From: Kappaphycus alvarezii | Taxonomy: Eukaryota; Rhodophyta; Florideophyceae; Gigartinales; Solieriaceae | Direction: 5' to 3' | NCBI GenBank assembly: GCA_002205965.3 | Contig: NADL03000016.1 | Span: 620,001 to 684,000 of the forward strand | DNA: 64,000 nucleotides | Shown: positions 7,042-56,660 of the stretch, piece by piece | How the letters are laid out: the number at the start of each line of letters is the position of its first letter | Numbering within the stretch: position 1 is the first letter of the stretch | Position numbers and translations under genes: made by a program | Notes under the pieces: generated by a model | The model's input: the letters and a program-made list of their open reading frames with translations, nothing else | What the model was told of the DNA's origin: nothing | Database searches by the model: none

Positions 7042-14413
<7,372 letters not shown>

Positions 14414-18653: not shown

Positions 18654-20150
18654 ATGCCTATCCTACTTCGCACAGCCCTTCGCACCCTACTCCGTCACCG
18701 CGCAACCGCGGTGCCAACTTCGTCAAAATCTCGTCCTACCTCGAATATCAGTCCTTACTTTGCGCTGGTTTCACTTCTTTTCTTCTTTCCATCAATTCAA
18801 AGACCACATCCAAAATTCCAACGCTATCTACTCTGAGCTCCGAACACCCGAGTACCACGAGCATTACTTCTACATCCCGCCCCCTACCATCTTGATAGTC
18901 CCTGCTTACGGCGGCATCGGCAACCAAATCTATTTTCTTCTCGAAGGTCTCTATCTCGCACGCCATGCTCACCTCCACCTCGTCATCCCGTCCATACCTT
19001 TCCGAAAGTTCCCAACAAAAAATCTATCTTCCACACCCGAGGAGCCCGGTCACTTGTATTGGGATATGAACCTGCTTCAACAGGCGGTAGGACCAAACAG
19101 CGCGGTGGTGAAAGAGCTGCCCGAATCCTGCAAAGCGCAGTTCGATGCTATTTATTTTACATCGCGTGGTGCAATCAAGAAAAAGCCGGCGCAACTAAAA
19201 GTGCCCTCCCGTGTGCGGCAGGCGGCTTGTTTTCAAGTGAGAGATTATGACTGGGAGGACGAGGTACCGCCGCTAAATGAATGGGAGTGTGAGGAACGTC
19301 TTTTTGCAAATACATCACTTGAACGGCGGGCGTTGCCATTGTCGTTTCCACCGAGGATGCAGTTTGTGCGGGAGTTGAAGGCACTTCGAAGTAAGCAAGT
19401 GTTGGCGGCGGGGGGGAGAGATATGAGTCGGCCGGCATGTGTGATTGTGGATGGACATGGGTTCAACGTAGGGGGTAAGCTGGGACATGAGTACTTGTAC
19501 TCGTTTATGCACTTTTTGGAGGCGGGGGAGAGGATTCGAGGCATGGCTTCCGAGTGGAACGTAGAATCGCTGGTGTGTTGCATTTGCGGTATGACGAGAG
19601 GGAATGCCGAAGCGAGAGGGTGAATGCGAATATGGTGTGTGTGCGGGTGTCCATGGGGGGCGATGGTTCGTCGGGGGTGTATTGGGCGCATGTGGGGGAG
19701 TTGGTGAACGTTGTGGTGCGGGCAATGAATGCGGAGGGGGTGGCGAGGATTTTCATCGCAGCGTCGCCGTATGTGCCGCGCAGGACGGTGGATCGGTTGC
19801 GGGAGGCGTTTGGAAAAAGGATGCAAGTGGCGGAGGAAGTGGCCGGGCTGGGGCATAATGAGGGGAATTTTGTCGAGAGGGAATTGGCGATTCGGGCAAA
19901 GTGTTTCGTGGGCGATTATGGGTCGACTTGGTCGGGAACGGTTTATTATAAGAGGAGGACTTTGGGGAAGAGGACACTGTGGAGTAGTGTGTTGCTACGG
20001 AGGGCGAGAAACTTGGGATACTACGGTGAGACGAAATCTATTCCAAAGCCAGAGGTTTGGGAGAGGAGGATTGTAGCGGTGAGTAGACAAGTGCAAAATG
20101 AGAGTCGAGCGACGGGCAATGAGGCAACGACGAGCCAACTGTTTAGCTAG
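18654..20150 (+). CDS. O-fucosyltransferase-like glycosyltransferase with signal anchor
   Basis: This resembles GDP-fucose protein O-fucosyltransferase-type enzymes of the secretory pathway. The ATG at 18654 (MPILLRTALRTLLRHR) is followed by a hydrophobic anchor, YFALVSLLFFFPSI. The nucleotide-sugar site PAYGGIGNQIYFLLEGLYLA lies at about 18900-18960. A second conserved block, GVLHLRYDE, is at about 19575. A third, IFIAASPYVPRRTVDRLREA, is near 19750, and a fourth, CFVGDYGSTWSGTVYYKRR, near 19900. These match in order the G-GN, HxRxxE/D and S-xF-x-YS-type blocks of the family. The protein is about 490 residues, a usual length. Two frame breaks (about 18830 and 19565-19580) are each explained by one lost base. 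Acceptor and sugar are unknown; a cell-wall or glycoprotein role is inference. Confidence 0.78.
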
Positions 20151-20263: not shown

Positions 20264-20758
20264 ATGAAAAAAGTTTTCGATGCAAATTTAAATCTAATAG
20301 CGCAAAAAGGCAGTCTGGTCGCGTGCGACATTACCGTCGTCTCCCCGTTCAAAGCCGCCGTCCGCACCAAGGCCATCTCGGCCGCTGGCGGTGCTGCCGC
20401 ATTGGCGCACCGTGACAAGGTACGGGACCTGGAACGCAAGCTGTCGCGCCGCCCCCCTGCACCGTCCGACACCCCGACCCATGCACCGAACTTTACGTTT
20501 CAACCAATTTCGTTTGATTCTCTCGGTGCGCCTGCCCCACAAACCCTTGTTTTGCTCGAGGAGTTAATCCCGCGAACAGCGCGCAGCTATAAAACGAATG
20601 CCGGCGTGACACGCCGGCGTGTGTATCAGCGCCTGAGTTGCTTCATCTGGTCATCTATCGCTTTGGCTATCTGCTCGCGCACGCCGCTGCACGTGACCGA
20701 CGTGGACCATCCGGTTAGTTTCTTGCCCTACGGTGGGATCCTGCAGTGGACACCGTAA
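20264..20758 (+). mobile_element. LINE-type retrotransposon, C-terminal fragment (copy 1)
   Basis: A single open frame reads CDITVVSPFKAAVRTKA (from about 20318), then GAPAPQTLVLLEELIPRTA, and ends VYQRLSCFIWSSIALAICSR...DVDHPVSFLPYGG. This is the conserved region after the reverse transcriptase of some eukaryotic non-LTR-type elements. An RPxD...DITV layout, seen whole in copy 2, recalls a restriction-like endonuclease, but that is inference. Only the 3' end is present, as usual for 5'-truncated LINE copies. It is the best preserved of at least four related copies here (others near 26600, 39600 and 46700). Confidence 0.7.
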
Positions 20759-21153: not shown

Positions 21154-22288
21154 ATGGATCAAGAACCTAATGATATCACCGATGACGCTGAGGAGTCTTT
21201 TGCAGATTGGACTATATCAACTAATGTTTGTCATAATGTCATGCTTGTCAATCGAGTCTTATCGACAACGCTTTTAGCTGTGCTCGTGATATTTCCTGAT
21301 GAAGATGCGCTTGACATCGGAGACTTCTCCGTCAACCCAAATGCACGAAAATACAACCGTCTCAACAATCTCATTGAAGGACATCTGTCCCTGTTCAAGG
21401 TGAACACTGGGTTCTTTCCGTCGGAATTTGAACAGTTGAGCCAGCTGGTATGCCCATAATGCTGTCTCGTGCTCGACACAGTAACGCTCCGAGGAACAGT
21501 TTGGGGCGTCCTACCAAGCTAAGCGCTGAGGAGAGGCTTCTATCCTGTGTGATATACGTTCATCATAGCAATGGGGTGCGTACGGACGCAGCAAACTGGA
21601 ATGCAAGCCGCACATCTTTGCGTGATGACGCAATGTCTTGTGCTCCGTCATAAACGAAGTGCTGGAATATGAAATAGCTTGGCCAAATCCCGCGAAGCGT
21701 AGTGTTCTACGCAATAGAATACCACAATTACCGGACTGTATTGGTTCCGTAGATGGAACTCTCTGTCGTATTAAAAGTCCTACATGCGCAGAACCACGGG
21801 CCTACTATAACGGTCGAAAGAAGGTGTACTGTTTCAACAGCACAGTTGTTTTGAGCACGACAGATTATTTAGGCGTTGCACCATGCTACGGTGGCTCATT
21901 TCACCACGTTAGAATCTCATGCGATACAGACCTCGCGCGAAATTGGCAGCAATATTTTACTGGGGAGCCGAACAACCAGCACCCTGTTGAAAAACTGCTC
22001 GGGATCCTGGATACCTTGGAATGGATCACTTCACCTTATGGAGAATTGATGAACGTGAGTTCGAAAATATCGACAGTGATCCTGTATTGAGAGCATTCAA
22101 CTGTATGCATTCGGGCTTTAGAGTAGCCGTGGAGTGGGGCATCGGTGGCTTCAAACAAAAATGTGCAAGATTCCAAGCTGTTTGAGCGAACAGGAGGAGG
22201 TCGTTTTCAACATATGTGTACTACTGCTGCAATTCTTACAAACTTCATTCATCGGCGTCGGAGACTACAGTGTAGTCATATCCGGTAG
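21154..22288 (+). pseudogene. Harbinger transposase (DDE_4), with several frame breaks
   Basis: This is the cut-and-paste transposase of Harbinger 1. The ATG at 21154 starts MDQEPNDITDDAEESF. The catalytic D is in GSVDGTLCRI (about 21750), the second in GDPGYLG-type sequence (about 22010, seen as DPGYLGMDHF in the shifted frame), and the E in VAVEWGIGGFKQKC (about 22125). Blocks such as YYNGRKKVYCFNS and SDPVLRAFNCMHSGFR are typical of the family. The end reads AAILTNFIHRRRR with a stop at 22288. Frame changes near 21457, 21640, 22005 and 22180 break the gene, but all three catalytic residues remain legible, suggesting recent decay or sequence error. Confidence 0.83.
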
Positions 22289-26589: not shown

Positions 26590-26853
26590 TCGCGGGTCTG
26601 GATACTCGGCACGAGGTTACATCCCTCTTTGCGGGCACTGATCTCCGGCCCGCCGATATCCTGGTACAACCCCCCAACCCCGGAAGGCACAACGTTGCGC
26701 CCCATTGCGTGTGACATCACTGTCGTCTCACTGTTCAAGGCCGCAGTTCGCACCAAGGCGACCCAGGTTGCCGGTGGCGCTGCTGAACTGGCGGACCACA
26801 ACAAGGTTACAACTCTTGAACGCAACATCGCCCGACGCCTCCCCGCTCCCTCA
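26590..26853 (+). mobile_element. LINE-type C-terminal fragment (copy 2)
   Basis: It reads LRPADILVQPPNPGRHNVAP in one frame and then, after a one-base shift near 26708, CDITVVSLFKAAVRTKATQ and DHNKVTTLERNIARRLPAPS in another. The second part is clearly homologous to copy 1 at 20318. It adds the upstream RPAD segment missing from copy 1 and stops before the last third, so it is truncated at both ends. Confidence 0.68.
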
Positions 26854-37739: not shown

Positions 37740-38190
37740 CACTAAATTTATTTCTCTGGTAGCCGAACTTTATATCGCACTGTACTGTACTTTTACAGTA
37801 CATACAGTGGAGAGGGGCTTCAAAAAGCCTATATAAGGGCCTGCGTACTGAATCGTGGAACAAGTCCAAGACAGAATAACTAGCCATCACACAGAAAAAG
37901 CAAGCATTTTTTCTTGACGCAAAAAGGAAAGCCAAACCGTCGAGCCAAACGGTCAGTAGTGGTGTCAGACATTGTAATGCGGGCTTTTAAGGCTTACAGT
38001 AGACATTTTTTAGCAACCTTGCTGCGTGCTACACGTATCTCACCTTTTGGGCTACGATCGTACAGGTCGAGCACTATAAAAAGAGATTATACTGTAGTGA
38101 TGGCCGAATAAAGAAATGCATGCAGGAAAAAGAGGGATAAAGAGGACGTCGGCTTGTGCAAATCAACTTGATCATACTGTTATTCAGGCC
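37740..38190 (-). repeat. Dispersed repeat, copy A (related to Harbinger 2 left end region)
   Basis: Read on the minus strand, 38060-37750 matches 54690-54990 over about 300 bp at roughly 70-75 percent by eye. Shared blocks include GTGTAGCACGCAGCAAGGTT, GTCTACTGTAAGCC, GTCTTGGAC and CCCTTATATAG, followed by a TACAGTAC word. A possible decayed end, GGCCTGAATAACAGTATG, lies at about 38187 inward, resembling the GGCCTGTTCCAA end of Harbinger 2. It is likely a degraded relative of that element. Confidence 0.55.
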
Positions 38191-39436: not shown

Positions 39437-39845
39437 TTCACCGCACTAACTTAACTGACCCTGTAGATGGGAACTAGCTGGGTATGCCATGTCAGCGGTG
39501 TGCGACGGGGCTCGGGACAAGACAGACATTGCTATGGACGAACAGATGGTAGAGCTAAGGCGTTGGTAGATCTTGCGGCTGACCGTACCAGTGCCTGTAA
39601 AGAAGCGGCGTGCGATGAGGGTGTTTTTGCATCAGAGTGATGGCAATCAACGAGGCGCGTAGAGAGTCAAGGGCGAGGGGCTGGAAGGTAAGTTGGGAGA
39701 GGGTAGTGGTGCGGATGGGAAATTGACAGGTTGGCGTGCCAGGTTGCGCTGAAGTCCGCGAATCTCGTCACAATAGGCGATCTCGGCGGCACTGGCAACA
39801 ACTGGACTGTACAGTCTGCGTTGTCTGATTTCGACGTCTGACGTG
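39437..39845 (-). mobile_element. LINE-type C-terminal fragment (copy 4)
   Basis: On the minus strand it reads AEIAYCDEIRGLQRNLARQP (about 39790), then in a shifted frame LTFQPLALDSLRASL, then VSRKIYQRLSSTICSSIAMS and SRAPSHTADMAYPAS. The blocks follow the same order as copy 1 (DKVRDLERKLSRRP; FTFQPISFDSLGAP; VYQRLSCFIWSSIALAI). At least two frame shifts are present, and it is more diverged than copies 1-3. Confidence 0.65.
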
Positions 39846-40312: not shown

Positions 40313-42098
40313 ATGCTATCAACGACATTCTTTCACCCCGGGGAACTGGCTGTACAGCGTCGTGCCGGCACTCGGGCGTCGCCGACGAACTGTCCGTCGG
40401 CATCTCCGACGTTCTTCCTGCGAATGGTAGAATCAACCCGTTATTCAGCGGTCTACGCTTCATCAACGTCGCCTCAATCTCCGGCGACCTTCAAACAAAC
40501 GACCACTTTATCTGGGTCTCACCCCTTTTCGGAAAAACTTTATCTACTACCCCTCGCCCGAAAATCTTCACATCGGCCTCGAAGGAATTCCCACCCATGA
40601 CGTCCTTTTCGAAAATTTGACCAACGTTGAGCAAAATCCCGTGGGTCTTCTCGCCCTCGATCTTCGCGCCCGTCGTCGCTGGAGAACCAATGGAACAATC
40701 AATTTCATCCCCGCCACCAAACCCCGTCCCATCTCGATGTCAACATTCGAGAATCCTTCCCCAACTGTCCAAAGTATATTCAGATCCGCGACGTCACGGC
40801 CTCCACCACCCACCTCCCGCCTCTCACTTCAAACCCCGCGGTTCAAAAAGATCACAAGCTCAACGACCACGACAAAGCGCTTATCCACGCCTCGGATACC
40901 TTGTTTGTTGGTACCTATTACAAGGGCAGCGGCGTCGATTGCAATCACCGCGGAGGTCTTCCAGGTTTTGTCCGTGTGCTGTCGGACTATGAACTGTACT
41001 GGCCGGATTATCGTGGCAATGGCCTCTTTCAATCCTTTGGCAACCTTCACATGAATGACAGGGCCGGGCTTGCGTTTATTGACTTTCCCACTGGCACGTG
41101 GTACAGCTTTCAGGTAGCGCCCAGGTGGAATGGGACGTTGACCCTAGCTTGAAAGTCGAGTCTGCTGCAACGCGCATCGTGCGCTTTAGAGTGGATGCCG
41201 TGCGGCGAAGCGTGGGTCGGTTACCAACTACCGTTGGGGGCAGGTTTCCTTCTCGCCGTACAATCCCGTAGTTGGCACAGAGGAGGCGGATGGTGTAAGA
41301 CAAGGCAGCCAGTTTCCTGTCAAGGTGACCATGGTGAAGATTGTGCAGGAATCAGCAGTGGTGAAAACGTTCCGGTTCCTGTCGCCGAAGCGGTGCAGTT
41401 TCTTCCGGGACAGTATGCGACGTTCGACTTTGGAAGTAAGCCGGAGTTGGGGACTGGGGAGGAGCCTATTGTGAGGACGTGGACGTTGTCGGAGGTGTCG
41501 AATTCGACAAAGGGGGATGTCACGTTGGAGGTTAGTGTGAAGAGGAAGGAGGGTGGATTGATGTCAAATTGGTTGCATGATTATGCGGCGCCCGGGATGA
41601 CCGCCATGTTGCTGGGCATTGACGGTGAAATGACGCCGTTTCGGACGGAGGCCCTCCGCAACGGTTTCTGCTGGTGAGTGGAGGAATTGGTATTACCCCG
41701 AATGTGGCCATTTTGCGTGGTATTGGGGCGCGACTGGATGCGTCGATCAACTACACGCCGAATGTTGTTTTGTTGCACCAAGAGCGATACAAGGAAGATA
41801 TCCCCTTTAGAACGAAATACGTCGGCGAGCGGCGCGGTCACATGGGCACACAAAGCTGATTACTTTTATCTCTGGTTGGAGTGAGGCGAGGGAAGAAATG
41901 AGGGATGGGGAAGAGGAGTTTGACAAATTTGTGCCGGGACGGATTGGAAAGGATGCCATACGACAACATGTGCCAGATGTGGAGAGTAGAGAGGTTTACC
42001 TGTGCGGCCCGATTTCATTTATGAAGGACATGACGGGACATCTGATTTCGCTTGGGGTGCCTGGAGACAAAATCATTACGGAAGAGTTTAATTTTTAG
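40313..42098 (+). CDS. FMN/FAD oxidoreductase: PNPOx-like domain fused to ferredoxin-reductase-like domain
   Basis: This is a predicted two-flavin electron-transfer enzyme. The start MLSTTFFHPGELAVQRRAGT (40313) is the hallmark of proteins joining a pyridoxamine-5'-phosphate-oxidase-like FMN barrel to a flavodoxin-reductase module. The FMN barrel shows DHFIWVSPLFG, NPVGLLALDLRARRR, CNHRGGLPGFVRV and NGLFQSFGNLHMNDRAGLAF. The reductase part shows FLPGQYATFDFG, the FAD motif RTWTLSE (about 41480), the nicotinamide-site motif SGGIGITPN (about 41675) and VYLCGPISFMKDM (about 42000). It ends EEFNF at 42098, with no 2Fe-2S domain after it. The frame breaks at roughly eight places (about 40375, 40540, 40740, 41115, 41390, 41660, 41810), most explained by one lost base, with conserved protein throughout. 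The architecture is common in bacteria and fungi, so transfer is possible. The electron acceptor is unknown. Confidence 0.82.
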
Positions 42099-43078: not shown

Positions 43079-45034
43079 TCAACCGCCTCTGACCTCTATG
43101 ACCCACTCAACACCAGCGACGTTTACACACGTGGAGACTTCATAGTTGCACTTACTCATGATTTGTGCTCTCGCAGAATGTGTTGATGCCAGCAAACCTA
43201 ACGCAACCTGTCCATCAGAGGTTTGCGTGATACGTTTCAAATCCACCGTGCGATAAACTCTCTCTCGGCAACTTGATGAATTTGAATCTCCATTGCCATA
43301 TTCATGCATCTCGAGAAAGTCGCTCGGCGCTTCAATATCCCTGATTCCATATTCCTGATCTCTTTCGGCACTATTGCTTGAAACGATGAACCTTTCCAAT
43401 GTGACTCCACTTGCAAATCAAACCTTTCCATCATGCAATACGGAACTACCGTACGACCAACTGTCTAGGAAAGCCGATGAATGCGGCTCACCATCAGACG
43501 ATTCACGTTTTCCGGCAAGGTTGCTTAGCGTTTCATCATCGCTAAATCCATATTCTTGATCCGCTTCCACAGGTCGTTCGCCTATCTCTGCCCCGTACGA
43601 GTATCTCTCCCTCTCCGCGCGGTTTTTTCTTCCTCTCACCCGGAAAAACTCCAATTCATCATCCGCAACTTCCACCGGGGACCGCGCCAGAATCGCGCAA
43701 ACTTCCTGCTTCACATAAATCCCAGCTATCTCTGCGGTGGAAGCAGGATTCATGCGTAATCTCAACACAGTTAGCACGATTATAGTCACTACTAGCAAGA
43801 TTGTCAGCGATAGCCAGTTAAGAAGCCGCACAGACTCACCCCAGACGACTCCCTCCTCGCTGCGGACCTGGCCATCGTCAACAAAATAGTCTGAAGTATC
43901 CCTCCCCGACACCACTAGTGCAGCTGCACCTCCGAACACGTTCTGAGCGACGTGGAACGCTGGGAGCCTAGTCGGAAGAATCCCATCAACTGTTGTCCTA
44001 TACACATTAGCAGGGATCCGAAACTCGTCGCCCGGTAAGACTGCGACTTCCTCTCGACCTGTAGCATTAAAGCTTATGGCGAATCCATTAAGCATTTCAA
44101 TTGTGATGGGTGAATCGACCATTTCTTTGTTGTACAAGCTGCATAAATAGGAGATGTAGACGTTGTGAAGTGTCTCCACAAGTTGATCCTCGTTGTCAGG
44201 AGGCGGTTCCGCGGCCATGACTCTGGTCTTCTTGTCGCCAAGTGAAAAATAGGCCCTTGTAAAGTAATCAGAGACTTCGCCATCAATTTCGATGGTATGG
44301 TCCGCACCGTACTGATGTATTCGGGAGGTGAGAATGATGCGGACTGGTTCAGTGGCGTTCTGAAAGGGTTGGGGAAGGTCGCCATCCCTATTTGTTGTGA
44401 CGCAAACGTTAATTCTGGTCTCCATCTGAGCGACATGTTCGAGACGAGCGGAGCGACATGGACGGTTCCATGAGGCGCGGTTATGAAACTCAACTTTTTC
44501 CCATTTGGGGGTGACTGGTTGCCTGATCCGAAAGGTCACGGTATTGTTTGTAACGAGGGCGAAGCCCGGATTTGTGAGAAAGAGAATGCAAGTCTCCAAA
44601 CCAAAGGTGAAGAGCAGTATGGAAGTGGCAAAAATGAGGAGCTTTTTGTTTACGGTTCGCTTCGAAGACTTTGTGGTGGCACCCCGGTTAGCGTAAACGC
44701 TGCGAATATCGAAATCACGGAGAAACTCGAGGGTCTGCTTGAGAGAGAAGCCAAAGTTGCTGACCAGTCCATTCTTGCTTCGGAGGAGAAAGGTTGCGAC
44801 GGTCCCTTCTATAACGAGCAGCAGTAAGAGGGAAAGGAAAGCCAGGAAGATATCATCATTAGCGGTAAGGTCTCCAGTGAAAGGGTTTGTGGCCCTTTCA
44901 GTGATAGGTAGAATCGGGCGGAGGAAGGAGTTGATGTTAAAGAAACCCATTGTAGATATGTTACGAATATTTGTCTCGTTAGTGACAAAGGCCAGGAATT
45001 CCCTGCCGTGTCGGTCACCCCTAATTTCGAACAT
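43079..45034 (-). CDS. Three-helix membrane protein A of an unrecognised family, with in-frame TGA
   Basis: Family and function unknown. The ATG at 45034 opens 538 codons ending at a TGA at 43418. The same frame then runs another 112 codons to 43079. Hydrophobic helices are predicted at about residues 62-84 (IFLAFLSLLLLLVIEGTVA), 131-154 and 405-425 (NWLSLTILLVVTIIVL). Between helices 2 and 3 lies a loop of about 250 residues with a Cys pair (193 and 211) and NxT sites (163, 226, 323), so it is probably lumenal or outside the cell. After helix 3 come a conserved STAEIAGIYV and an acidic, Ser-rich tail. The tail motif ADQEYGFSDD (about 491-500) recurs past the TGA as RDQEYGI, so the TGA may be a mutation, an error or a read-through site. 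The clear paralogue is at 52304-53980. There is no frame break before the TGA, unlike the enzyme genes here. Confidence 0.8.
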
Positions 45035-45359
45035 TGTCAGTGAATCACACGGTGAAGAGGCGGAGAATGTTTCGGAGGGGAAGACGTAGGCGATTAATTG
45101 AGGCTACTAAGGGAAGTTGGAGTGGAACGAACAAAAGCTTAAAAGATGTAGATGCATGAATGAAGAACACGATTGAAGCGGGAGTGCGACTTTGTGGGCT
45201 GAACAGATGCTGTAACCTTGAAGACAAGAACTGATCGGAGTTTTCCGGGGGGGCTGTTTGGGAGGGGTAGATGTTTCTTGATACTAATGGAAGAGGGGGT
45301 GACGGAATTTATCGGGAAGTGGATGGGGCAGCTACGAGACTGGCCAAGAGAATTAGATG

Positions 45360-46080
45360 ATTTAGGCGCAGTACAATACAGTATATACTGTACAGCTAAC
45401 AGCACAGTACTGGTGTACTTTGGCCATCTGTTTTTGAACTGCAGGTACAGTACTGTACAGGGATAGCAGCTTTATCATTGTATCGAATTTTTTACCTCGT
45501 GTCTTGTACCGCTGCATAGTCTTGATTGTAGAGTTCAGCATACATCTGTTGCAGAAGTGTAAAATCTGTTTTCTAATGTGCAAAATCTGGCAAATACTTG
45601 CCAAGACATTTTTTTTTGATTAGTGTTCATTTTTACCTCGGTAAGCTCACACCCTCTCACCTTAATCCAAATGAATGGAGGGAGAAACCTTATTGCATTA
45701 CTATCGACCAAGTGGCCTGACGTTAGGAATGACATTACTTCCCAAATATTAATTACCCTAGTTTTTCCCGTTTTTGCCCATACGTTTTCTGCGAGCTATA
45801 CTAACGGGACCGTATTTGACGTTGCGAGCTGACCGGTTGGTCTCCATTTTTGTTTCATTGAATTGAGTAGAGGGTACTGTACAGTAGTCACAGAATCATT
45901 CAAGGGATTTAGGGTTCACTGTACAGGATTACTCATTCCATGCACTCCAGATGAGGCGTTGAGTGGAGAAATTAGGTTGCATTCGTTGGTGGATAATATC
46001 CGCTGGATGATACAGTTCTGTACAGTACAACGTACAGTACAGTGCAGTTCAGTACTGTGATTTAATTACTGTTTACGTAG
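45360..46080. promoter_or_regulatory. TACTGTAC word clusters upstream of membrane protein A
   Basis: The words occur at about 45370-45415, 45445-45460, 45875-45890, 45918 and 46015-46060 (for example CTGTACAGTACAACGTACAG). They begin about 330 bp upstream of the gene A start, a placement matched by membrane-protein gene B. A regulatory role is inference. Confidence 0.4.
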
Positions 46081-46539
46081 AAATGGAAATGATAAGCCAA
46101 TCCGCTTAGACCGCGAGACTGTACTACATCAATTCATTGTTACAGAAAATTACCATTTTTTCTCTCATCGCTACTGCTGTGTAATAATTATCATTTTTCA
46201 CTGTCGCGGCAAGAATAAATAAAATCAATTATAAAACTCTAGGTTTTTTTGAAGAATTGAGGTTGACAGAGATTGTACCGCACTGAATTTTATTACGTAC
46301 GTACCCTACCGTAATAAACACACCTGAGAGGTCTACTTTACAGTTCATCCTCCAATTTTCAAGTAAAGATAACCCAACTTGTACCAATAGGTCTAAAAAG
46401 TTGGCAATTTTGATTGAAGCAAATATCTGGAATTTATTTCCAAATTTGGAGTGGCATCCACTTCAACCAGTGATGCCACAGTAAATTTGGGGATATTATT
46501 TATCCCTCATACAACGGAAACTATTTTCAGCCGGTCAAT

Positions 46540-46938
46540 TATTTTTCAGCGGAAGCCAGTTCCCGCCCTGATCGAAACCCGAGCGCGGGCCACCCGCAAC
46601 ATGGGGGGTGCCGCGGCTATCGCTCACCGCATCAAGGTGACTGACCTGGAACGAAAAATTTCGCGGCGTCTGCTACCGCCCTCAGAAAACCTGACCAGCC
46701 CCCAACTTTGAATTTCAACCGCTGGCGTTTGATTCCCTGGGGTCACCTTCGCCTGCCACCTTCCTCTTCATAGAGAGTCTTCTGCCGCGCATTGCGGAGA
46801 AGTTCGGCACCCCTGTCGGAGTGATCCGCAAGCGCGTGTTGAGTCGCATCAGTTGCACTATCTGGTCGTCAGTTGCGCAAGCTATTTTCTCGCGCATGTC
46901 CCTGCACGTGGACGACGTGGACCATCCTGTTAGCCCTT
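46540..46938 (+). mobile_element. LINE-type C-terminal fragment (copy 3)
   Basis: It reads GGAAAIAHRIKVTDLERKIS (from about 46600), then in a shifted frame from about 46710 FEFQPLAFDSLGSPSPATFL, IRKRVLSRISCTIWSSVAQA and SRMSLHVDDVDHPVS. It is close to copy 1 and truncated at its left. One frame shift near 46700 is seen. Confidence 0.68.
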
Positions 46939-49900
46939 AGCTAGCATTATAGATACTTAATGCAATAAAATTTATCACTATACCGCACAGTCATATATTC
47001 TCAACGTACCGGAAGCTTGAAGAGTATCCCATGACTGCAAGAGCATCTCCGGACAACTGGTAGGACCCCAAACCACTACTTACAGCAAAACACCACAATG
47101 GCGCCATCCATACCTCGCCAGATAGCTATTATCAAAAAGGATACAAACAAAAAATAGCACCAAGCCAATCGTACGGAAGCACCAATCTCCTGTAGGCGCC
47201 AATGCAAGAACATTCAACTGTAACCAATCACCATATTCTCAACCCACCCACCTGGACATAGTAAATGTCAGAAAAAATCACTGCAAGAGGGTAAGCCGAC
47301 CAAATTAGATAAAATTGTTGACGCTAAAGCACTAGAATATACAACTGCCTTAGTCAAAGAATAGGATGTACTGGTTGCTCATTGTGCAACTGCGGCAACA
47401 GAAAAGGCGCGGCGATCGGGTGCAATGGCGAAGCACATATGATGCCCTCAGTTCCACCAGATGGTCGAAGGATATGCAGGTGGTATGCCAGGAACTGATG
47501 TATTTGTCTTTTTACATTTATACCACCAGAAATCAACATTCAGTGCGAAAAGGTTAGGTACACAAAAACAGCGAAGATAAATGCTGAGTAAAGATAAAAT
47601 GTACAACCGTTTTTGACATCGTTCTGGAAATTAAAAAACTATTGGGAGAGACTTTAAATCTTCACACAATTTGAAGTTTCTATAGATAAGCTGTAAATGT
47701 GAAATGCAGGCAAAAAGATGCAGATGCTTAGATCTTTGAGATGCAAATACAGTTTTGAAGAAATCTTTGTAAAACTCGCCCTCGGTAAAATCAAAATTGC
47801 TGTTTTTACTTGCTTGCCAGCGGTTTTAAACAACTTCAAATCTTTTTCGTAACTCCATTCTTCATTATAAAGAGTGAGCGACTCCATGGTGAGTGTTTTG
47901 AGCCACAAGAGGCCCGAACTACGCACGGTTGTCTTGAAACCGGCATCTGCAACAGCTTTTGCATCGTAAATGGTTTCACAAGAGTTCATAAATAGTGAAA
48001 GAAAGACAGAAAGGATCGAATGAATTTGATATATTTTCCGTCCGCCATCATAAATAGTGTGAAAAGATATATGATGCGAAATGTTGATAATTAAAACGGA
48101 TACAAAATACTCACGAAATGGTGTTCATTGGCCATGGAAGTTGCATTTGCAAAATAGTTTCGGTATTTTATTTGAGCGAACATGAGCTATTTTCGTCTTC
48201 AAAGCGATTAATTTGTCAAAAAATTCTAAGTGGGCTTGCGGTAGGGTGCCAGAAGAATTTTTAGCCAAGTCACTTTAGATCACAGAAATTTCGAGTTTGT
48301 ACGGCTGCTAAATAATCACCATCAATATTATCACTAAAAGCTTTTGAAGAATTGAATCTATCCTTTTTAGCTATACTTTTTTCCATATGAATAGGAGGTC
48401 CCGAATCAATTCAGATTTCGCGAACGCAGTATAAGTTGTCCACTTAGACTTAACTATACCTTTAGATTATATTATTTTCTAAAAAAATTCATACCAAATC
48501 AGTCTCGTTTAAAGAATTGTGGTGAATATCTAACATCTTGGCAACAATCATATCAGCACTACAGCAGTTTTCTATCTTATATTGTAATAAAAAGACAGTA
48601 GAAGGCACTCTGGCAGTCTTGACATGGCAGCAAATGGAATAAAATCGGTACCAATTAGTGTTAACGGAAGTCCAATATGCTTATAACAAAAGCGGCATAC
48701 ACAAGAATAACGCCTCAACTTGCAAAAAAATGTAAACAGTAGACGACAAGAAACGACAAAAAAGAGCAAGAGCGCATAGAAAATGAGCAGAAAGGCGGGT
48801 AAGGCGAGAACTAAAAAACAGCGTAAATGGAACGGACAGACCAATTGAAATAGATGCGCACAAGGAGCGCACCGCAAAAGTACTTGAACGAGTGCAATAA
48901 AATGAAGGGTTTCTTTGTCTCCCTGGGCGAGGCAGAAAAGATATGTAAAAGAGAAAGGCCGCCCGGAAGAAACAAAATTGGTGTGTAGCCGTACTTGGTG
49001 ATGAGATTTCCATGGAAAGGTATGCAAGGAGAAAGGATGGCGTTAGGCCAGTCTGCAATGTAAGAAGAGAAAAGTTGCTTCCTGTCCTCTTTCGGCAGCG
49101 ATGGTGCTCAATATTGTGGACGATGCTTGCTTATGTTTTTTCGGGACTGAGGTTTGAATGGGGAGCTGATCGGAGATCAGGTGAAAATATTTGGTATGCT
49201 TTTGACTGAACTTAGTGACCGCTTGCGGGGTAGAAATTTGCTGGTAAAAACCAATCGAAACCATGGAAAATGTGCATGAATCTAGACTCATTTTTAACGG
49301 CCTGTTGATTGAGCGGAATTTCAATTGGATTTTTTGAGTACGAGTTTTGTTTGATTGCATTTTTCGGTTATTTTCAAATATTTTCCCTATACAGGAGGTG
49401 TACCTATTACTTATCAAAAAGGTGCAACGACTGGCCGACTTTCCATTTCAAAGGTATTTCAATAAATTAAAGTAATATAGGGCTAAATGTGCAGTTGATA
49501 ATGGCCTTATTTGACTCAACTATGAGTGGATCTAAAAGATGTGTCAAATTATTGGAATTCATCTACATATGGTAAAATTAACATTAAAAAGGCAAAACAG
49601 TTCAATATGGCGAAAATTTTGTTTTCAAAGCATCGTATAGACTGCTGCGCAGCAGTAAAATCAGTTTAGATCGATGATTAAAATTACAAGTATTCGTTTC
49701 ATACACACAAAAGTGGCATTGAATAAACAAAAGTGTGTCTTAGTAATGTTTTTTTGCAAAATTAACAAAGTCACACAATAGCGCCCTGTATATTTGCATT
49801 CATACGAAAAATACATCTAGGTCCAAAACGATATTTTAAAAATCTTTCATATTAAGAAATATGTTAACCTTTTTGTCAATTCATTTATAAATACTTATAG

Positions 49901-51229
49901 CAATAATTTAAATGATTATAATTTTGAGCACACTTAGGTATTTATTAAAGTGAGTACGATAATTTATTTTCTTCTTTTCTCGAAAAAACATTCCGACAGC
50001 GTATTTGCGTGCAAACAGTCACATTAACAAATAATTATGGCACTACATTCCTGTATTTATCAATATGCATTCGATAAGGGAATTAATGTCTTCAGATTGA
50101 TGCTAATTGAAATAAAATATTCAAGGCATTGTGCAGAAATGTTTTTATATAGGATTGAGTTCATAGTAACACGTATTTTAGTCCAAAAGGGAAACATAGT
50201 TTCCCTTTAGGTATCCTTTTTCACTTCTGAAAGGATAGAATGAAGCTCCATGTTGTATGAACTGCCATTGAAAGGACACTTATTCTGAGAAGGGACTCAA
50301 ATGGTATTCAAACTCCTCCAAATTGTTAGCCCTGTTTATTTTCCCTTGAACTTAGGAGAAGCGATTTTTTACGTCGACAAAACAAGCTCGAGCAATCCCA
50401 ATTTTATCAAAATGCATTTTCTTTAAAATTAACTCATTCTTTTTCAATGATCAAGACGTTTGCACGCGAAAGCATCTGGTCTATTCGGGTTAAACTTTTC
50501 CTCGTCGGACCCTTTCGTGTTTGCTCAACTTGAACTGAGTTCAACGTGGATTGATCTCACGGCACTTTCGTTGCTGCACTTTTGACGGGCTTGTTAATAT
50601 CTTGCACTCATTACCAGGTTGAAAGCATTATTTTTGTGTCGAACATGTCATTACCTCTGAAAAAGCAGCCAGATTCATAAGGATTTACAGAGAGTTGCGA
50701 AGCCTTCAATAAGCCTCAACGTCCAAGTTTTTCCTGTGAAACTTCCCTATTGATATGAATATTTTCCATTCATTTCGACTTAAATCTTCTCAAGCGGTAG
50801 ATAAGATTTTCGGAGTGTTCTAACCATTTTTAAATTGTCACAATGCTCCAGCAGTTGGCATGGGGAGACAAGATTTTATTCTTTGAAATTAGTGAGTGAC
50901 GGCTTTGGGGGATTGTGATTAGGGCTGAAGAGGCGGTATCGAAGTACATCTGTTGGTTTCTATTTGGAAGGTTTTTCTCGTCTAAACAGACATGTGTTCG
51001 TGCCATTTGAGTGCTTTGTTCCCATGCATTGACTGTTTCGGTCAAACTGTGGCTATATTTAATGCTGAGCATGAATGATAGGAATGCCAATATCTTTGTA
51101 AATATGACTGGTTTTTTAAGTCCTGCAAGCTCCCCTCGAGTATGGGACGCTTACAAAGCACCATAGTCCTCATCTGAATAATATAGCAAAAACACGGACA
51201 AAGGTCGACTCTCATTAATTTAATGCCAT
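46939..51229. other. Long gene-poor AT-rich stretch
   Basis: No gene is recognised over about 4.3 kb. Minus-strand frames at 47654-47989 (111 codons) and 48572-49027 (151 codons, hydrophobic) have no identifiable domain. The second lies opposite purine-rich DNA, which produces hydrophobic readings by composition. Decayed repeats are likely but I cannot name them. 49440-50820 is especially AT-rich with dense stops. Confidence 0.45.
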
Positions 51230-51930
51230 CACTGTACAGTATGTGTATGTGGGAAACTGGGGCCCTCATCTACGGTAAAGACTTTAGTGGGCTTGCTAAA
51301 GAGACATACCTGGATGGGCTTAACCGATGCCTACTCCAGCAAGGGGGACAAGGGTACATACTGTAGTACTGAACTACTGTAGTGCAATACTGTACTTTCC
51401 GTATTGATACTGTATAAAGTACAGTACGGTTGATACTTTAGGATACGGTACTGTAATGATAGAGCTACAAGGGATACCGACGAAAAAAAATAATATGAAA
51501 TACTGTACATACTTACAGTATTACTGTATTCAATGAGAAAAGCATTAGGCTACGGTATCAGAAATTCAGCTACAGTACTGTCCTGTAGAGCAATCGTACG
51601 GTTTCGCAATTGGGTTGACAATGATACGATATCTACGCTTCGGTACAAATTTACTGGATACCAGCCCACATATCTGCCACAGTAAATTGACCCTCATTTA
51701 CCCAGATAACATTCTGCTTTATGGCGATGTGAACAGCACTGATGAGTGCAGCAGGCGGATGTAATACTCTGTTGTACAGTACTGTACTGTTGCGAGTTGC
51801 GGCCGTTTCAAGGAGGATGGCAGTTCTGTACTGTACCTGGCAAGTCGGATATTTCCAGAGCATTAATCCTTGCTGTACTGTACTGTTCAAGACGGCAATC
51901 AGTATTGTACTGTAGGAATATTACAAACAA
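51230..51930. promoter_or_regulatory. Dense TACTGTAC word cluster upstream of membrane protein B
   Basis: This is the densest cluster in the window. Words of the GTACTGTA/TACAGTAC type and one-base variants occur repeatedly at about 51233, 51360-51430, 51450, 51500-51530, 51572, 51775-51790, 51827 and 51875-51915. It ends about 380 bp before the start of membrane-protein gene B. A scrap of retroelement-like sequence lies at 51300-51360 within it. Function unknown. Confidence 0.42.
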
Positions 51931-52303
51931 TTGGCTACAACGCCGTGAGCAGTCTTTGTTTCCTGCGATTTCAGAGCTCTTTGTTTCCTATGCATCAAAT
52001 TTGAAAGCTCGATCCTGCATGATAATAGAGCCTAAACGCGTTTCTCCCTCTTTCTTCGTTCTTATGACTTCATGTGGTCCAAATGCTCCACCCCCGTGGC
52101 TGCAGACAGGATTACCGTCATTAATTCAGCAAATGACTTCAAACCCACTCACCGGACCGATTTTCACTTGCAACCTCGCTACCGACTGGCGTTCTTACCA
52201 CTCTCCCAGCTTACCTTCGACATTTTTCCCCGAAACTTCGTAACCCAAAAAGGCCCCAGACTGCAGTTCGCATGCAGCCCCTCGTAACCTTATTTCTTCC
52301 CAC

Positions 52304-53980
52304 ATGTTTGCAATTCACAGTCTCTTCACACCGCCAATAGCACCATTTTGTTCCCCTCGATTCCGCAAACCACTCTACCCAGGCAATTGCACTGCCGTCC
52401 CGTATTCATTCCATGTCAGCCGAGGATATTCCATCGTTTATAACACTCGTCGATGCCACGGGACGCACTACTTTGCCGCCAATCCCGAAGCCATTCCGCT
52501 TAGACTGCGACCAGAAAACGCCTCCGACACAGCCGTCAACATTGCCACATTTCTTTCCGATACACTCGTGGTAACTCCTCGAGTCGCAAACCGCTTCTCT
52601 TCTGACCTTACATCCACGGATGACCCACTTTTGGCCTTGCTGTCCCTCCTCCTGCTTCTTGTCATGGATAGCATCCTGGCCACTATTTTGCTGCGCACTT
52701 ATCGTGGCTCTGTAAGCAATGTCGGCTTCTCAATCAAGCAGTTTATCGACATGGCCCGTGAATTTCGCTTTACTCACCTTTTCAAAGGCCACCGCAAAAG
52801 ATCCTCCGCTCGCGCTCGCGGAACACGCATTAATCAAAACGTCCTGTTTGTTGCAATTCTCCTCTTAATTCTCACCTTTGGACTCGAGGGCGTAGTACTC
52901 TTTCTGAGCAGTCCAGAGCTCAAGGAAGTTTTCAATGACCAAACATCCTACACATTACGCACCGATATCATGCCAGATTGGAATGAAATACAACGGGCGG
53001 GGATTTCCGCAACCATGAGACCGTGCAATGCTATCACCCTTGCTGATGTTGACCAAGGCAACAATCAGTTGAGCCTGTGCATGATGTCGGACCCCCTCAC
53101 AAATCTGCGAGAGGAGCCCACGGTCATTGACGGAAACATAACCCTCTCCATTGTCACCGAAGTGCACGAATTCGGCATTCAGCACAATGTCACCGTTGGC
53201 GAGTTTTCCGCCAGGTTCATCGGTCGCGGCTACTTCACACTCAACGATGCTGTCAATCGAATGCTTCGGTCAAGACAATCCCTTTTGAATCGAGGGAGGG
53301 CGTTTGGATTGATGCACCGTCAGTACGTCGCTTATCTCTTCTCACAGCACGGTCGGCTTAGCCCCAACCAGGGCTTAAGTCTCGAGCAGTTGGAAGCACT
53401 CGATATTAGGTTCAGTACTACGGAGGGAGAGACGATAAGAGTAGTCCAAGTGATTGGAAACCGAAGATTCCGTACGGTCCCCACCATTCGCTACATAACA
53501 ATAGTCACAGGCATGATTCCTCATGGGCTCGAGGCTTTACGATTCGCGCATGCCACTTTGAAGGGCTCTATTGCAGTTGCGTTGGCAGGACCAGATGAGA
53601 CCGACCTGCACATGGGACGAGGAGACATTCTCGCCCTCAGGGGTTGGCTTTGGAGAGAGACCACCAGGAAACTCAACTGGTTGTCGCTCACTATTCTGTT
53701 GGTTTTCTCCTCTTTGACTCTTGTGGGGATGAGATATTTGTATGCACCTATTGGAACCGCTGAAATCGCAGGGACATATGTTACAGAGGTCGTAGGAGCT
53801 GAGATACACAGGCCACCGGCGCTGCTACAGGATTCAGAAAACATGTACTTCAGGGCGCCGCGAGAGGTCATTTCAGGAGCCGTAAGCGCTCTGGACGACG
53901 TTGGAGTTTCGACGTGGGATGAGTATTACCACACCAGTCAACAAACTGGGTGCAAACGTTCGATTACCAAAAGATCTTAA
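52304..53980 (+). CDS. Three-helix membrane protein B, intact paralogue of protein A
   Basis: Family and function unknown. The single uninterrupted frame has 558 codons from the ATG at 52304. Helices are predicted at about residues 108-130 (LALLSLLLLLVMDSILATI), 179-201 (VLFVAILLLILTFGLEGVVL) and 456-478 (NWLSLTILLVFSSLTLVGM). A basic loop of about 45 residues joins helices 1 and 2 (KGHRKRSSARARG), so that side is probably cytosolic. The 254-residue loop between helices 2 and 3 has Cys241 and Cys259, spaced 18 apart exactly as in protein A. A conserved GTAEIAGTYV follows helix 3 and then a cytosolic tail with FRAP-type sequence. The N-terminal 100 residues (YNTRRCHGTHYFAANPEA) align weakly with protein A. 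The similarity is strongest in the helices and juxtamembrane parts, suggesting an old duplication. No coding partner is adjacent. Confidence 0.82.
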   Translation: MFAIHSLFTPPIAPFCSPRFRKPLYPGNCTAVPYSFHVSRGYSIVYNTRRCHGTHYFAANPEAIPLRLRPENASDTAVNIATFLSDTLVVTPRVANRFSSDLTSTDDPLLALLSLLLLLVMDSILATILLRTYRGSVSNVGFSIKQFIDMAREFRFTHLFKGHRKRSSARARGTRINQNVLFVAILLLILTFGLEGVVLFLSSPELKEVFNDQTSYTLRTDIMPDWNEIQRAGISATMRPCNAITLADVDQGNNQLSLCMMSDPLTNLREEPTVIDGNITLSIVTEVHEFGIQHNVTVGEFSARFIGRGYFTLNDAVNRMLRSRQSLLNRGRAFGLMHRQYVAYLFSQHGRLSPNQGLSLEQLEALDIRFSTTEGETIRVVQVIGNRRFRTVPTIRYITIVTGMIPHGLEALRFAHATLKGSIAVALAGPDETDLHMGRGDILALRGWLWRETTRKLNWLSLTILLVFSSLTLVGMRYLYAPIGTAEIAGTYVTEVVGAEIHRPPALLQDSENMYFRAPREVISGAVSALDDVGVSTWDEYYHTSQQTGCKRSITKRS

Positions 53981-54555
53981 CTTTGTCCGACTCGTTAGGG
54001 TCACCCTGCATGCGTCTTACGACGTGGTCGGGAGAAAATCATTGGAGCAAAACATCAGTGAGGCGCGGGATGGCAAGTAGGTGGACATCATGAAGTCCAT
54101 GAGGGGGTTCAAACCTGAGACCGATATTTGAGAAGCATGGTTTAGGGGTTTTATGTGTGTATTATCGGGCTTGTCAGCGACGCTGGCTGCTGTCAGTATT
54201 TCCGAAGACCGCCATATTCCTTAATGTGGAAAGTAGAGATCCGTCGCACAAACTCCCGAAGTGTCTAGCAGCCCAGCATATCTGTGCGCGGGTGTGCAGT
54301 TGCACCAGTCTCATAAGGGCTTTGCTGCTGCTCGCATCTATTATGCTTGCAGCATACCGTACATTTCCAAATTGAGGTTTGCCACAGGTGTGAAGCCGTG
54401 GCCGTATTGTATTGCACAGATCTACTCCAGAAAGCCAATTGCTGCTCGAGACTACTGTACTTTCATATTTGCTTCTCAGGGCCCAACTACTGTAGCTTAA
54501 CTTCGCCGTCACTATTTTTGAAATTTTTTTCTCGAGTTACAGTACTGTACCGTGA
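53981..54555. other. Intergenic, no supported gene
   Basis: This is the 3' flank of membrane-protein gene B up to the left end of Harbinger 2. One TACAGTACTGTACC word lies at about 54538, directly against the transposon end. Confidence 0.5.
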
Positions 54556-55139
54556 GGCCTGTTCCAATACAAAAAATTATCGCATGGGGCACAAAATATA
54601 CATGTGTTTATATGTCATATCTATCCGTTTTTACTCCTTAATTTTCTTTAATACTTGTAAAGGGCTACTAAAATTGACCAGCTTTGGAGCGGGATGTAGT
54701 ATCGCAGCCCAAGAGGTTTCACACGTGTAGCACGCAGCAAGGTTGCTGGTGGAAGTCTACTGTAAGCCCAACTAGCCGAGCTTACAAAGTCTGACACAAC
54801 TATTGGCCATTGTGCTCGACGGGTTGGCTTCCCTTATTGCAGCAAGAACAAGTGTTTACTTCTGTCTGATGGCTGATGATTCTTGTCTTGGACGCTCCGC
54901 TACCGTACGCAAGCCCTTATATAGACTTTTTTGTAGTCTGCACTGTAATTTGGAAGTACAGTACAGTGCAATGTAGAAATTCCACCGTAAAAAAAAATAT
55001 CTCCAATAGGACGAGCATACAAAGATCATTATCATAAAATATCTACGCATTCCTGCTGAGCTGTCACAGGTGCTGCGCTGGCACAGCAAAACGTTGCTTG
55101 CTGCGCTAGCACTTTCGCACAGAATTTATGTATAACACG

Positions 55140-55549: not shown

Positions 55550-56660
55550 TTGTGATGATTCTAGGCTACGAGGGACGTGGCGAGCGGACTATATCTCGCG
55601 GAATTTTCTCATTTTCTTCTATCTCGCGTGGCACCCCCCTGCATTTTTCAGGCGACTGTACCGTATGTCCTCACGCAACTTTCATGCTTTTCGCCGGGAG
55701 GATTGCTTTCGTAGACAATTCCAATTTCAGACGGAGCTCACCACTCCATTCTGTAAGTTTGCGTCGGTTAGCCGGTGGTTCTTATTTAGATTTAGCCCTA
55801 GCGCATAACATATCTACCTCAACTATATACCACTACATTGATGAAACCATCTTTGCAATTGATTCGGCCTTGCAAATAACGTTTCCGTACCGAAACGCAT
55901 CTTTGCTAAGGAAAGTCTCTGATGGATTTGCAAGGGATAGGCGTAGCGCTCTGGACATGTGTTGCGGTGCTTTGGACGGACTGGTCGTCAAAATAAATGA
56001 GCCAACTGCATGGGAAGTTCCGAATCCATCTACGTACTATAATACAAAGGGTTGTTTATCTCTAAAAGTGCAAGCAGTTTGCGATTCTAAGTACAGGTTC
56101 ACATTCTTGTCTTGTCTCTCTCCGGGTTCAACCCATGAGAGCACGGCACACGCAATGAATACACTGTCTAGACTACTTAAGAGGGGGTAGAGTGGCCTTT
56201 CAGCAGGGGTTTAAATTGCTACAGATAAGTGTATAAACAGGCTTTTGACGCCTTCGTCTGGTAAAGCGCTCAGAATCTCGAACGACTGCTTCAATTATCG
56301 GCTGTTTACGCTATAATTCATGTGAAGCAGAGTTTCGGGATGCTCATTGGAAGAAATGGGTGTTTTGGAGGCCGCTGAGGTTCACTGTCACCAAAAATGC
56401 CACTATCATAACAGTCTGTCGCAAATTGCACAACTTCATTATAGAACATGAGGACTGTGCAGACATTCCATCTCCATCTGGGGTTGATGTTAGATACCAT
56501 ACAGAGACCGCAGATCGACAGGTCTACCTTCAAGATGATTGTGACCTCAACAAAGAACTACACCGCAGACGTCGTGATCTTGAGTCATCTCAGCCCCGGG
56601 ATGATTTCACAGCTGAAATTGAAGCTAGTGCTCGTCGCAGACCATGTATCTAAAAAATAG
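55550..56660 (+). pseudogene. Harbinger transposase 2 (DDE_4), broken
   Basis: The conserved part begins with a helical region (SYLDLALAHNISTSTIYHYI, about 55790). Next come the first catalytic D in CCGALDGLVVKI (about 55970), TYYNTKGCLSLKVQAVCDS, and GSTHESTAHAM (about 56130). Beyond a frame change near 56190 come a RLLTPSSGKALRI-like block and a WRPLRFTVTKNATIITVCRK block (about 56370), with HNFIIEHEDC near the end. The E-containing block before WRPLR is hard to read, so completeness of the triad is uncertain. The start codon is not clear. Confidence 0.75.

What the first reader, a model, noticed from the sequence alone, without database searches (positions are those of the whole stretch)
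43079..53980. Unrecognised three-helix membrane protein family in two divergent copies
Genes at 43418-45034 (minus) and 52304-53980 (plus) share three helices at matching spacing and a 250-254-residue loop with a Cys pair exactly 18 apart. Both also carry the near-identical words LSLLLLLV, FGLE, LNWLSLTILLV and TAEIAG.YV. Both are large, have no frame breaks in the shared region, and match no family I know. The juxtamembrane TAEIAG motif and the conserved helix faces suggest a functional membrane unit, for example a receptor or adhesion-type protein with a large outer domain. This is the best candidate here for something undescribed. Function is inference.
Basis: partly seen in the sequence, partly recalled or inferred. 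Interest (0 to 1): 0.75.

Follow-up and report, generated by a model that had tools for sequence, protein, structure and literature searches.

The report
Diverged orphan membrane-protein gene pair
Two neighbouring genes encode distant copies of the same three-pass membrane protein, which matches no family in the libraries searched and looks kept by selection, although what it does is unknown.

Summary
P1 (43418-45034, minus, 538 aa) and P2 (52304-53980, plus, 558 aa) are homologues: 33% identity over 441 columns, E 2e-70. Each has three hydrophobic segments and a loop of about 250 residues whose only shared cysteines lie 18 apart. Synonymous sites are randomised (46 of 141 identical residues share a codon; 44.1 expected), while identity by codon position is 44/59/33%: a far-diverged pair under protein-level selection. 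Helices and predicted cytosolic flanks are 40-65% identical, the loop 23%. No relative was found in Pfam, NCBIfam, PADLOC, PDB or the viral and prokaryote scans; PHROGs gave one weak match (E 0.073). No eukaryote collection was available, so 'lineage-specific' and 'red algal' are untested. AlphaFold with two sequences failed (pLDDT 33 and 40). 'Conserved helix faces' did not pass a test. Conserved neighbours (PRP8, a reductase) are broken by frame changes, and coding bias is poor at some ORF ends, so the gene ends are uncertain. Most likely an undescribed surface or secretory-pathway membrane protein with a fast-changing outer domain; sensing or adhesion is inference.

The parts
43418..45034 (-). 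P1: 538-aa ORF, three-segment membrane protein (TM1 about aa 60-85, TM2 130-153, loop 154-399 predicted outside, TM3 400-428, tail 429-538 predicted cytosolic)
   Evidence: ORF; homologous to P2 at 33% over 441 columns, E 2e-70; hydropathy
52304..53980 (+). P2: 558-aa ORF, paralogue of P1; BLASTP-shared region aa 79-517; aa 1-78 and 518-558 lie outside it
   Evidence: coding bias favours another frame in the unshared ends
44780..44857 (-). P1 TM1 (about aa 60-85): run LSLLLLLV, acidic residue E76 (D122 in P2), then ATxLLR
   Evidence: 65% identity in this segment; residues checked
44648..44779 (-). P1 loop between TM1 and TM2 (aa 86-129), basic (8 K+R, 3 D+E; P2 11 and 2), predicted cytosolic, with the conserved GxVSNxGFSxKQ stretch
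   Evidence: 40% identity; the positive-inside rule is established knowledge
44576..44647 (-). P1 TM2 (aa 130-153) with invariant TFGLE (E147; E195 in P2)
   Evidence: 46% identity
43838..44575 (-). P1 predicted outer domain (aa 154-399): 23% identical to P2, shared Cys 193/211, N-glycosylation sequons at 163, 226 and 323
43685..43837 (-). P1 TM3 and juxtamembrane segment (aa 400-450): LNWLSLTILLV ... TAEIAGxYV
   Evidence: 52% and 50% identity
52910..53668 (+). P2 predicted outer domain (about aa 203-455), Cys 241/259, sequons at 278 and 295
43079..43417 (-). Frame after the P1 TGA stop: open for 112 codons to a second TGA at 43079-43081; holds a diverged copy (about 43205-43360) of the P1 tail stretch 43421-43561, so the stop may be a true end, a mutation or an assembly error
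   Evidence: DNA local score 79 against a maximum of 41 in 500 simple shuffles; protein score 61 against 46 in 1000

Best explanation
The two genes encode diverged members of one undescribed integral membrane protein family. Shown: homology, far divergence with continued protein-level selection, three hydrophobic segments, and a shared Cys pair. Inferred from sequence: N-terminus outside, a basic cytosolic loop between TM1 and TM2, a 250-residue outer or lumenal domain between TM2 and TM3 with one disulfide, and a cytosolic C-tail. The membrane core and its predicted cytosolic edge (VSNxGFSxKQ after TM1, acidic residues in TM1 and TM2, LNWLSLTILLV-TAEIAGxYV at TM3) change slowly, whereas the large loop changes fast. 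The most likely working model is a conserved membrane core that assembles, probably as an oligomer, and reports or anchors what a copy-specific outer domain binds: a cell-surface or secretory-pathway sensor or adhesion unit. The functional step is inference.
For: Homology 33% over 441 columns, E 2e-70, far above hydropathy-preserving shuffles. Synonymous codons are randomised (46 of 141 same, 44.1 expected) while codon-position identity is 0.44/0.59/0.33 over 430 codons. Whole-ORF coding bias is highest in the true frame for both (0.119 and 0.099, against at most 0.038 in the other five frames). Identity by region: TM1 65%, loop 1-2 40%, TM2 46%, large loop 23%, TM3 52%, juxtamembrane 50%. Only the 193/211 and 241/259 cysteines are shared. 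All 9 N-glycosylation sequons (5 in P1, 4 in P2) fall in segments predicted outside (chance by length 0.039). Loop 1-2 net charge is +5 and +9.
Against: No homologue with a function, no usable fold (pLDDT 33.1 and 40.0) and no expression data. The N-tail stretch next to TM1, also predicted outside, is 44% identical (27 of 27 aligned), so not everything outside changes fast. Charges outside loop 1-2 do not help the topology: the P2 N-tail is net +5, the P1 N-tail 0, and the C-tails net -9 and -3. No 19-residue window starting in the first 32 residues passes 1.4 hydropathy (maxima 0.97 and 0.72), so no signal peptide is evident, though no predictor was run. No conserved helix face. With two sequences, single conserved residues carry little weight.
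Confidence: 0.4

Rival explanations
1. A ligand-gated channel or transporter subunit: outer domain between two helices as in P2X, ENaC/ASIC or ionotropic glutamate receptors, with the intramembrane acidic residues (E76/D122 in TM1, E147/E195 in TM2) lining a path or binding ions.
For: The order outside N-tail, TM1, short cytosolic loop, TM2, large outer loop, TM3, cytosolic tail resembles the pore and S2 part of glutamate receptors (recalled); both acidic positions are kept in both copies.
Against: No PDB sequence match for P1 or the profile at E up to 10, only two chance matches (integration host factor, E 0.72 and 1.2) for P2; no Pfam family; the glutamate-receptor motif SYTANLAAF (recalled) is not in the ORFs; no conserved helix face.
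Confidence: 0.15
2. An accessory subunit of the secretory or wall-building machinery (for example a membrane partner of glycosyltransferases), with the 250-residue domain in the Golgi lumen.
For: Topology, sequons and disulfide fit the lumen as well as the outside; the window also holds glycosyltransferase-like ORFs.
Against: Fast divergence of the large loop (23%) is not what a fixed partner would suggest; the glycosyltransferase-like ORFs are over 20 kb away and below Pfam cut-offs.
Confidence: 0.25
3. A divergent member of a known eukaryotic membrane family that the libraries miss for want of close sequences.
For: A two-sequence profile is weak, and no eukaryote sequence database could be searched.
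Against: No Pfam family at E up to 10 for either full protein or either outer domain; no PDB hit with the two-sequence profile.
Confidence: 0.25
4. Cargo or envelope-like gene of a mobile element or virus: the window holds transposase pieces and repeated element ends.
For: DDE transposase pieces at 2598-3335 and 55552-56190 (above Pfam cut-off) and 21638-22090 (weak); a repeated element piece at 46698-46934 lies between the two genes; two imperfect 17-nt inverted pairs (88%) flank P2 at 51561/54488 and 51772/54955.
Against: The inverted pairs are instances of the TACAGTACTGTA-type word found across the window, and no pair frames P1 in the region searched; no relative in five pattern-seeded viral scans; randomised synonymous sites do not fit recent transposition.
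Confidence: 0.05

Closest known systems
P2X receptors and ENaC/ASIC channels (recalled)
   Same: A large disulfide-bearing outer domain held between two membrane helices
   Different: Those have two helices with both ends inside and many cysteines; here there are three hydrophobic segments, N-end predicted outside, and one shared Cys pair; no PDB match above chance
Ionotropic glutamate receptors (recalled)
   Same: N-end outside, three crossings, a large outer segment before the last helix
   Different: Too short an N-tail for an S1 ligand-binding part before TM1 (about 60-105 aa), no pore motif seen, no Pfam or PDB match above chance
Malectin/Ig-fold candidate receptors of multicellular red algae (PMC8307928, passages seen)
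   Same: Proposed outer-domain proteins in a lineage reported to lack receptor kinases
   Different: No malectin or Ig family hit in either protein; host lineage of this window is unverified

Membership tests
Ionotropic glutamate receptor | Detectable ligand-gated-channel or ligand-binding-core profile | tested here: not met
   Pfam 0 families at E up to 10; PDB none for P1 and two chance hits (integration host factor) for P2
Ionotropic glutamate receptor | N-outside with three crossings and an outer segment between the last two | tested here: inconclusive
   Hydropathy and loop 1-2 charge fit; other charges do not help; no re-entrant loop was seen
P2X / ENaC-ASIC channels | Two crossings, several outer disulfides, Pfam family match | tested here: not met
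   Three hydrophobic segments, one shared Cys pair, no Pfam match
Mobile-element cargo | Terminal repeats framing the gene | tested here: inconclusive
   None frames P1; two imperfect 17-nt inverted pairs flank P2 but belong to a word spread over the window
Viral envelope gene | Relatives in viral sequence | tested here: not met
   0 relatives in five pattern-seeded viral-contig scans
Red-algal lineage-specific family | Orthologues in several red algae and none elsewhere | not testable with these tools
   No eukaryote collection; no genome held for the window
Receptor / adhesion protein | Outer-domain ligand and signalling or cytoskeletal link | not testable with these tools
   No usable fold, no functional data

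The most novel reading that the evidence does not exclude
A previously unseen class of cell-surface sensor: a conserved three-helix core carrying a fast-changing, disulfide-stapled outer domain, present as a far-diverged paralogous pair in a lineage (red macroalgae, if the host guess is right) that is reported to lack receptor kinases.
Probability: 0.12. Interest if true: 0.7.

Novelty: new variant of a known kind. Interest (0 to 1): 0.38.

Why it matters
[quoted passage not shown] Even without that, two copies at 33% identity with randomised synonymous sites are good evidence for an unnamed functional family, and they give an invariant residue set from which a real profile could be seeded.

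Tried and rejected
Chance or composition: rejected by shuffles that keep the hydropathy profile. Recent duplicate or pseudogene: rejected for the shared region by randomised synonymous sites with the frame kept. Mobile-element cargo: no repeats frame P1; P2 is flanked by two imperfect 17-nt inverted pairs built from a word spread over the window, not accepted as terminal repeats; no viral relatives. Internal duplication of helices: TM1 segment against TM3 segment gave probability 1.8%, E 0.027, over 21 columns, not accepted. Missing exon shared by both: no significant shared translated stretch upstream (best E 0.075, in CTGTAC-rich repeat) or downstream (best E 0.65). P2 tail against the two P1 tail stretches: no similarity (scores 16 and 18). 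Fold: AlphaFold on P1 with P2 gave pLDDT 33.1; on the outer domains 40.0 for the best model and 25.9-29.6 for the other four. Foldseek on the second gave 0 of 603 PDB and 0 of 598 viral matches at E up to 0.001 (50 of each listed; best PDB match MoaC, E 0.016, TM 0.23), treated as meaningless. Prokaryote genomes: 0 relatives in two pattern-seeded scans. Rfam and tRNA: nothing in the window. Bacterial-type promoter and terminator scan of the spacer: about chance level and not apt for a eukaryote. Literature: five searches aimed at the family (20 of 128 listed; 38, 15 of 30 listed; 39, 1 unrelated paper; 48, 14 of 14; 64, 2 of 2) listed no paper that, judged by title and abstract beginning, describes it; two searches were about splicing structures and assembly errors. 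The library holds open-licence papers only, and none of the 15 papers listed mentions Chondrus crispus, so this is weak evidence of absence.
Full report
What was checked. The two ORFs are at the stated places: P1 at 43418-45034 on the minus strand (538 aa) and P2 at 52304-53980 on the plus strand (558 aa). They lie head to head with 7269 bases between them. BLASTP aligns P1 33-465 with P2 79-517: 145 of 441 identical (33%), 53% positives, 10 gap positions, E 2e-70. Membrane proteins can look alike by composition alone, so P2 was shuffled within 20-residue windows, which keeps the hydropathy profile: the real local score is 621 against a maximum of 123 in 300 shuffles, and for the large loop alone 240 against 57. 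The homology is real and does not rest on the leucine runs.

Divergence and constraint. At 141 aligned identical residues other than Met and Trp, the two genes use the same codon at 46; chance from their codon usage is 44.1. Synonymous sites are therefore randomised, and dS cannot be estimated (NG86 dN 0.754, dS undefined; YN00 failed). Identity by codon position over 430 codons is 0.44, 0.59 and 0.33. Frame and protein similarity were kept after synonymous similarity was lost, which is the strongest evidence that both are functional genes over the shared region. Whether the split is old or the genes evolve fast cannot be told from two sequences.

Anatomy. Hydropathy gives three segments in each protein. 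Using boundaries from hydropathy and the weak model, identity is 44% in the 27 residues before TM1, 65% in TM1, 40% in the loop after it, 46% in TM2, 23% in the 246-residue loop, 52% in TM3, 50% in the next 22 residues, 36% in the next 15, and 27% over the 41 of 73 alignable residues of the rest of the tail. The loop between TM1 and TM2 is basic (8 K+R to 3 D+E in P1; 11 to 2 in P2), which by the positive-inside rule puts it in the cytosol, and the N-tail and the large loop outside. The other charges do not help: the P2 N-tail is net +5, the P1 N-tail 0, and the C-tails net -9 and -3. All nine N-glycosylation sequons fall in the parts predicted outside; by length alone the chance is 0.039, mild support. 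No N-terminal hydrophobic window suggests a signal peptide; no predictor was run. Cys 193/211 of P1 and 241/259 of P2 are the only shared cysteines and equally spaced, so a disulfide is likely (inference). Acidic residues in TM1 (E76/D122) and TM2 (E147/E195) are kept. They are not supported.

Search for relatives. Pfam-A and NCBIfam gave 0 families at E up to 10 for both proteins; PHROGs gave one of unknown function at E 0.073 for P1; PADLOC none; Pfam none for the outer domains alone. PDB sequences: none for P1, two chance matches at E 0.72 and 1.2 for P2, none for the profile. Viral contigs: five scans, none confirmed. Prokaryote genomes: two scans, none confirmed. These scans start from exact short peptide patterns and can miss distant relatives. 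No eukaryote sequence collection was available and no genome is held for the window. 'No match above chance in these libraries' is shown; 'lineage-specific' and 'red algal' are not.

Fold. P1 with P2 as alignment: mean pLDDT 33.1, pTM 0.21. Outer domain of P2 with that of P1: 40.0, pTM 0.43 for the best of five models (others 25.9-29.6), a mix of strands and helices, with 56 of 253 residues at 50-70 and none above. Foldseek gave no match at E up to 0.001 among 603 PDB and 598 viral matches. No fold claim is made.

Ends of the genes. A codon-bias score trained on three PRP8 ORFs favours the true frame in P1 and P2 overall (0.119 and 0.099) and in P2 79-520 (0.121). It does not in P2 1-78 (0.022 against 0.078 in the next frame), the P2 tail (-0.002 against 0.138) or the P1 tail 466-538 (0.072 against 0.126). 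After the P1 TGA the same frame stays open for 112 codons to a TGA at 43079-43081, where the finding starts, and it contains a diverged copy (about 43205-43360) of the tail stretch 43421-43561 (DNA score 79 against a maximum of 41 in 500 simple shuffles; protein 61 against 46 in 1000). The real tails may be longer or different.

A warning from the neighbours. The PRP8-like gene at about 7168-13844 matches PRP8 of other eukaryotes in pieces that change frame 7 times up to aa 1960 of the reading (6 if one short piece seen by eye is left out), with no intron-sized gap between those pieces; more changes follow. The FAD-binding reductase at about 41195-42095 is also spread over three frames, by eye. 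Good residue conservation with many frame changes suggests uncorrected assembly indels more than decay, but I cannot prove which. At 7 to 12 breaks in 6.7 kb (the higher counts are assumptions), both shared regions being unbroken has a probability of 0.06 to 0.01.

How it may work. The slowly changing part is the membrane core and its predicted cytosolic edge; the large loop is free to change. That is the pattern of proteins whose core assembles or signals in a fixed way while the outside meets variable partners. I commit to a cell-surface or secretory-pathway sensor or adhesion unit as most likely (0.4 for the whole statement; about 0.85 for family and general topology by my judgement). Rivals are an accessory subunit of secretory or wall-building machinery (0.25), an ion channel or transporter (0.15), a distant member of a known family (0.25, overlapping with the others) and mobile-element cargo (0.05).

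Verdict. A genuine, far-diverged and constrained pair of orphan membrane genes. Such orphans are common in sparsely sampled eukaryotes (general knowledge), so interest is moderate (0.38) until orthologues and a fold are available.

Noticed in passing
7168-13844 (+): PRP8 splicing-factor gene (PDB matches at E 0) whose matched pieces change frame 6-7 times or more: assembly indels or a decaying copy.
   Followed up: partly
41195-42095 (+): FAD-binding reductase, flavohaemoglobin-like by recall (Pfam FAD_binding_6, E 0.0016, below its curated cut-off), spread over three frames by eye.
   Followed up: partly
43205-43561 (-): Diverged direct repeat with one copy on each side of the P1 stop codon; the frame is open for 112 codons beyond it.
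   Followed up: partly
19 places, e.g. 20889, 23631, 45446, 51775, 54538: The palindromic word TACAGTACTGTA (up to 1 mismatch) occurs 19 times against 0.06 expected; ACTGTACAGTA gives 8 matches over both strands (5 places) against 0 expected. No explanation found.
   Followed up: partly
51561-51788 and 54488-54971: Two imperfect 17-nt inverted pairs (88%) flank P2, built from the same palindromic word.
   Followed up: partly
20318-20719, 26704-26853, 39473-39769, 46698-46934: Translated pieces of one repeated element recur, one of them between the two genes; the ORF at 20264-20758 has no Pfam family above cut-off.
   Followed up: partly
2598-3335, 21638-22090, 55552-56190: Transposase pieces: Tc5/DDE_1 type at 2598 and DDE_Tnp_4 type at 55552 (above cut-off), DDE_Tnp_4 weakly at 21638 (which tested 10 of the 21 ORFs).
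   Followed up: partly
15611-16183 and 19554-20150 (+): Glycosyltransferase family 2-like and O-fucosyltransferase-like ORFs, both below Pfam cut-offs.
   Followed up: no
37822-38073 and 54686-54931: Inverted diverged repeat pair about 250 bp long.
   Followed up: no
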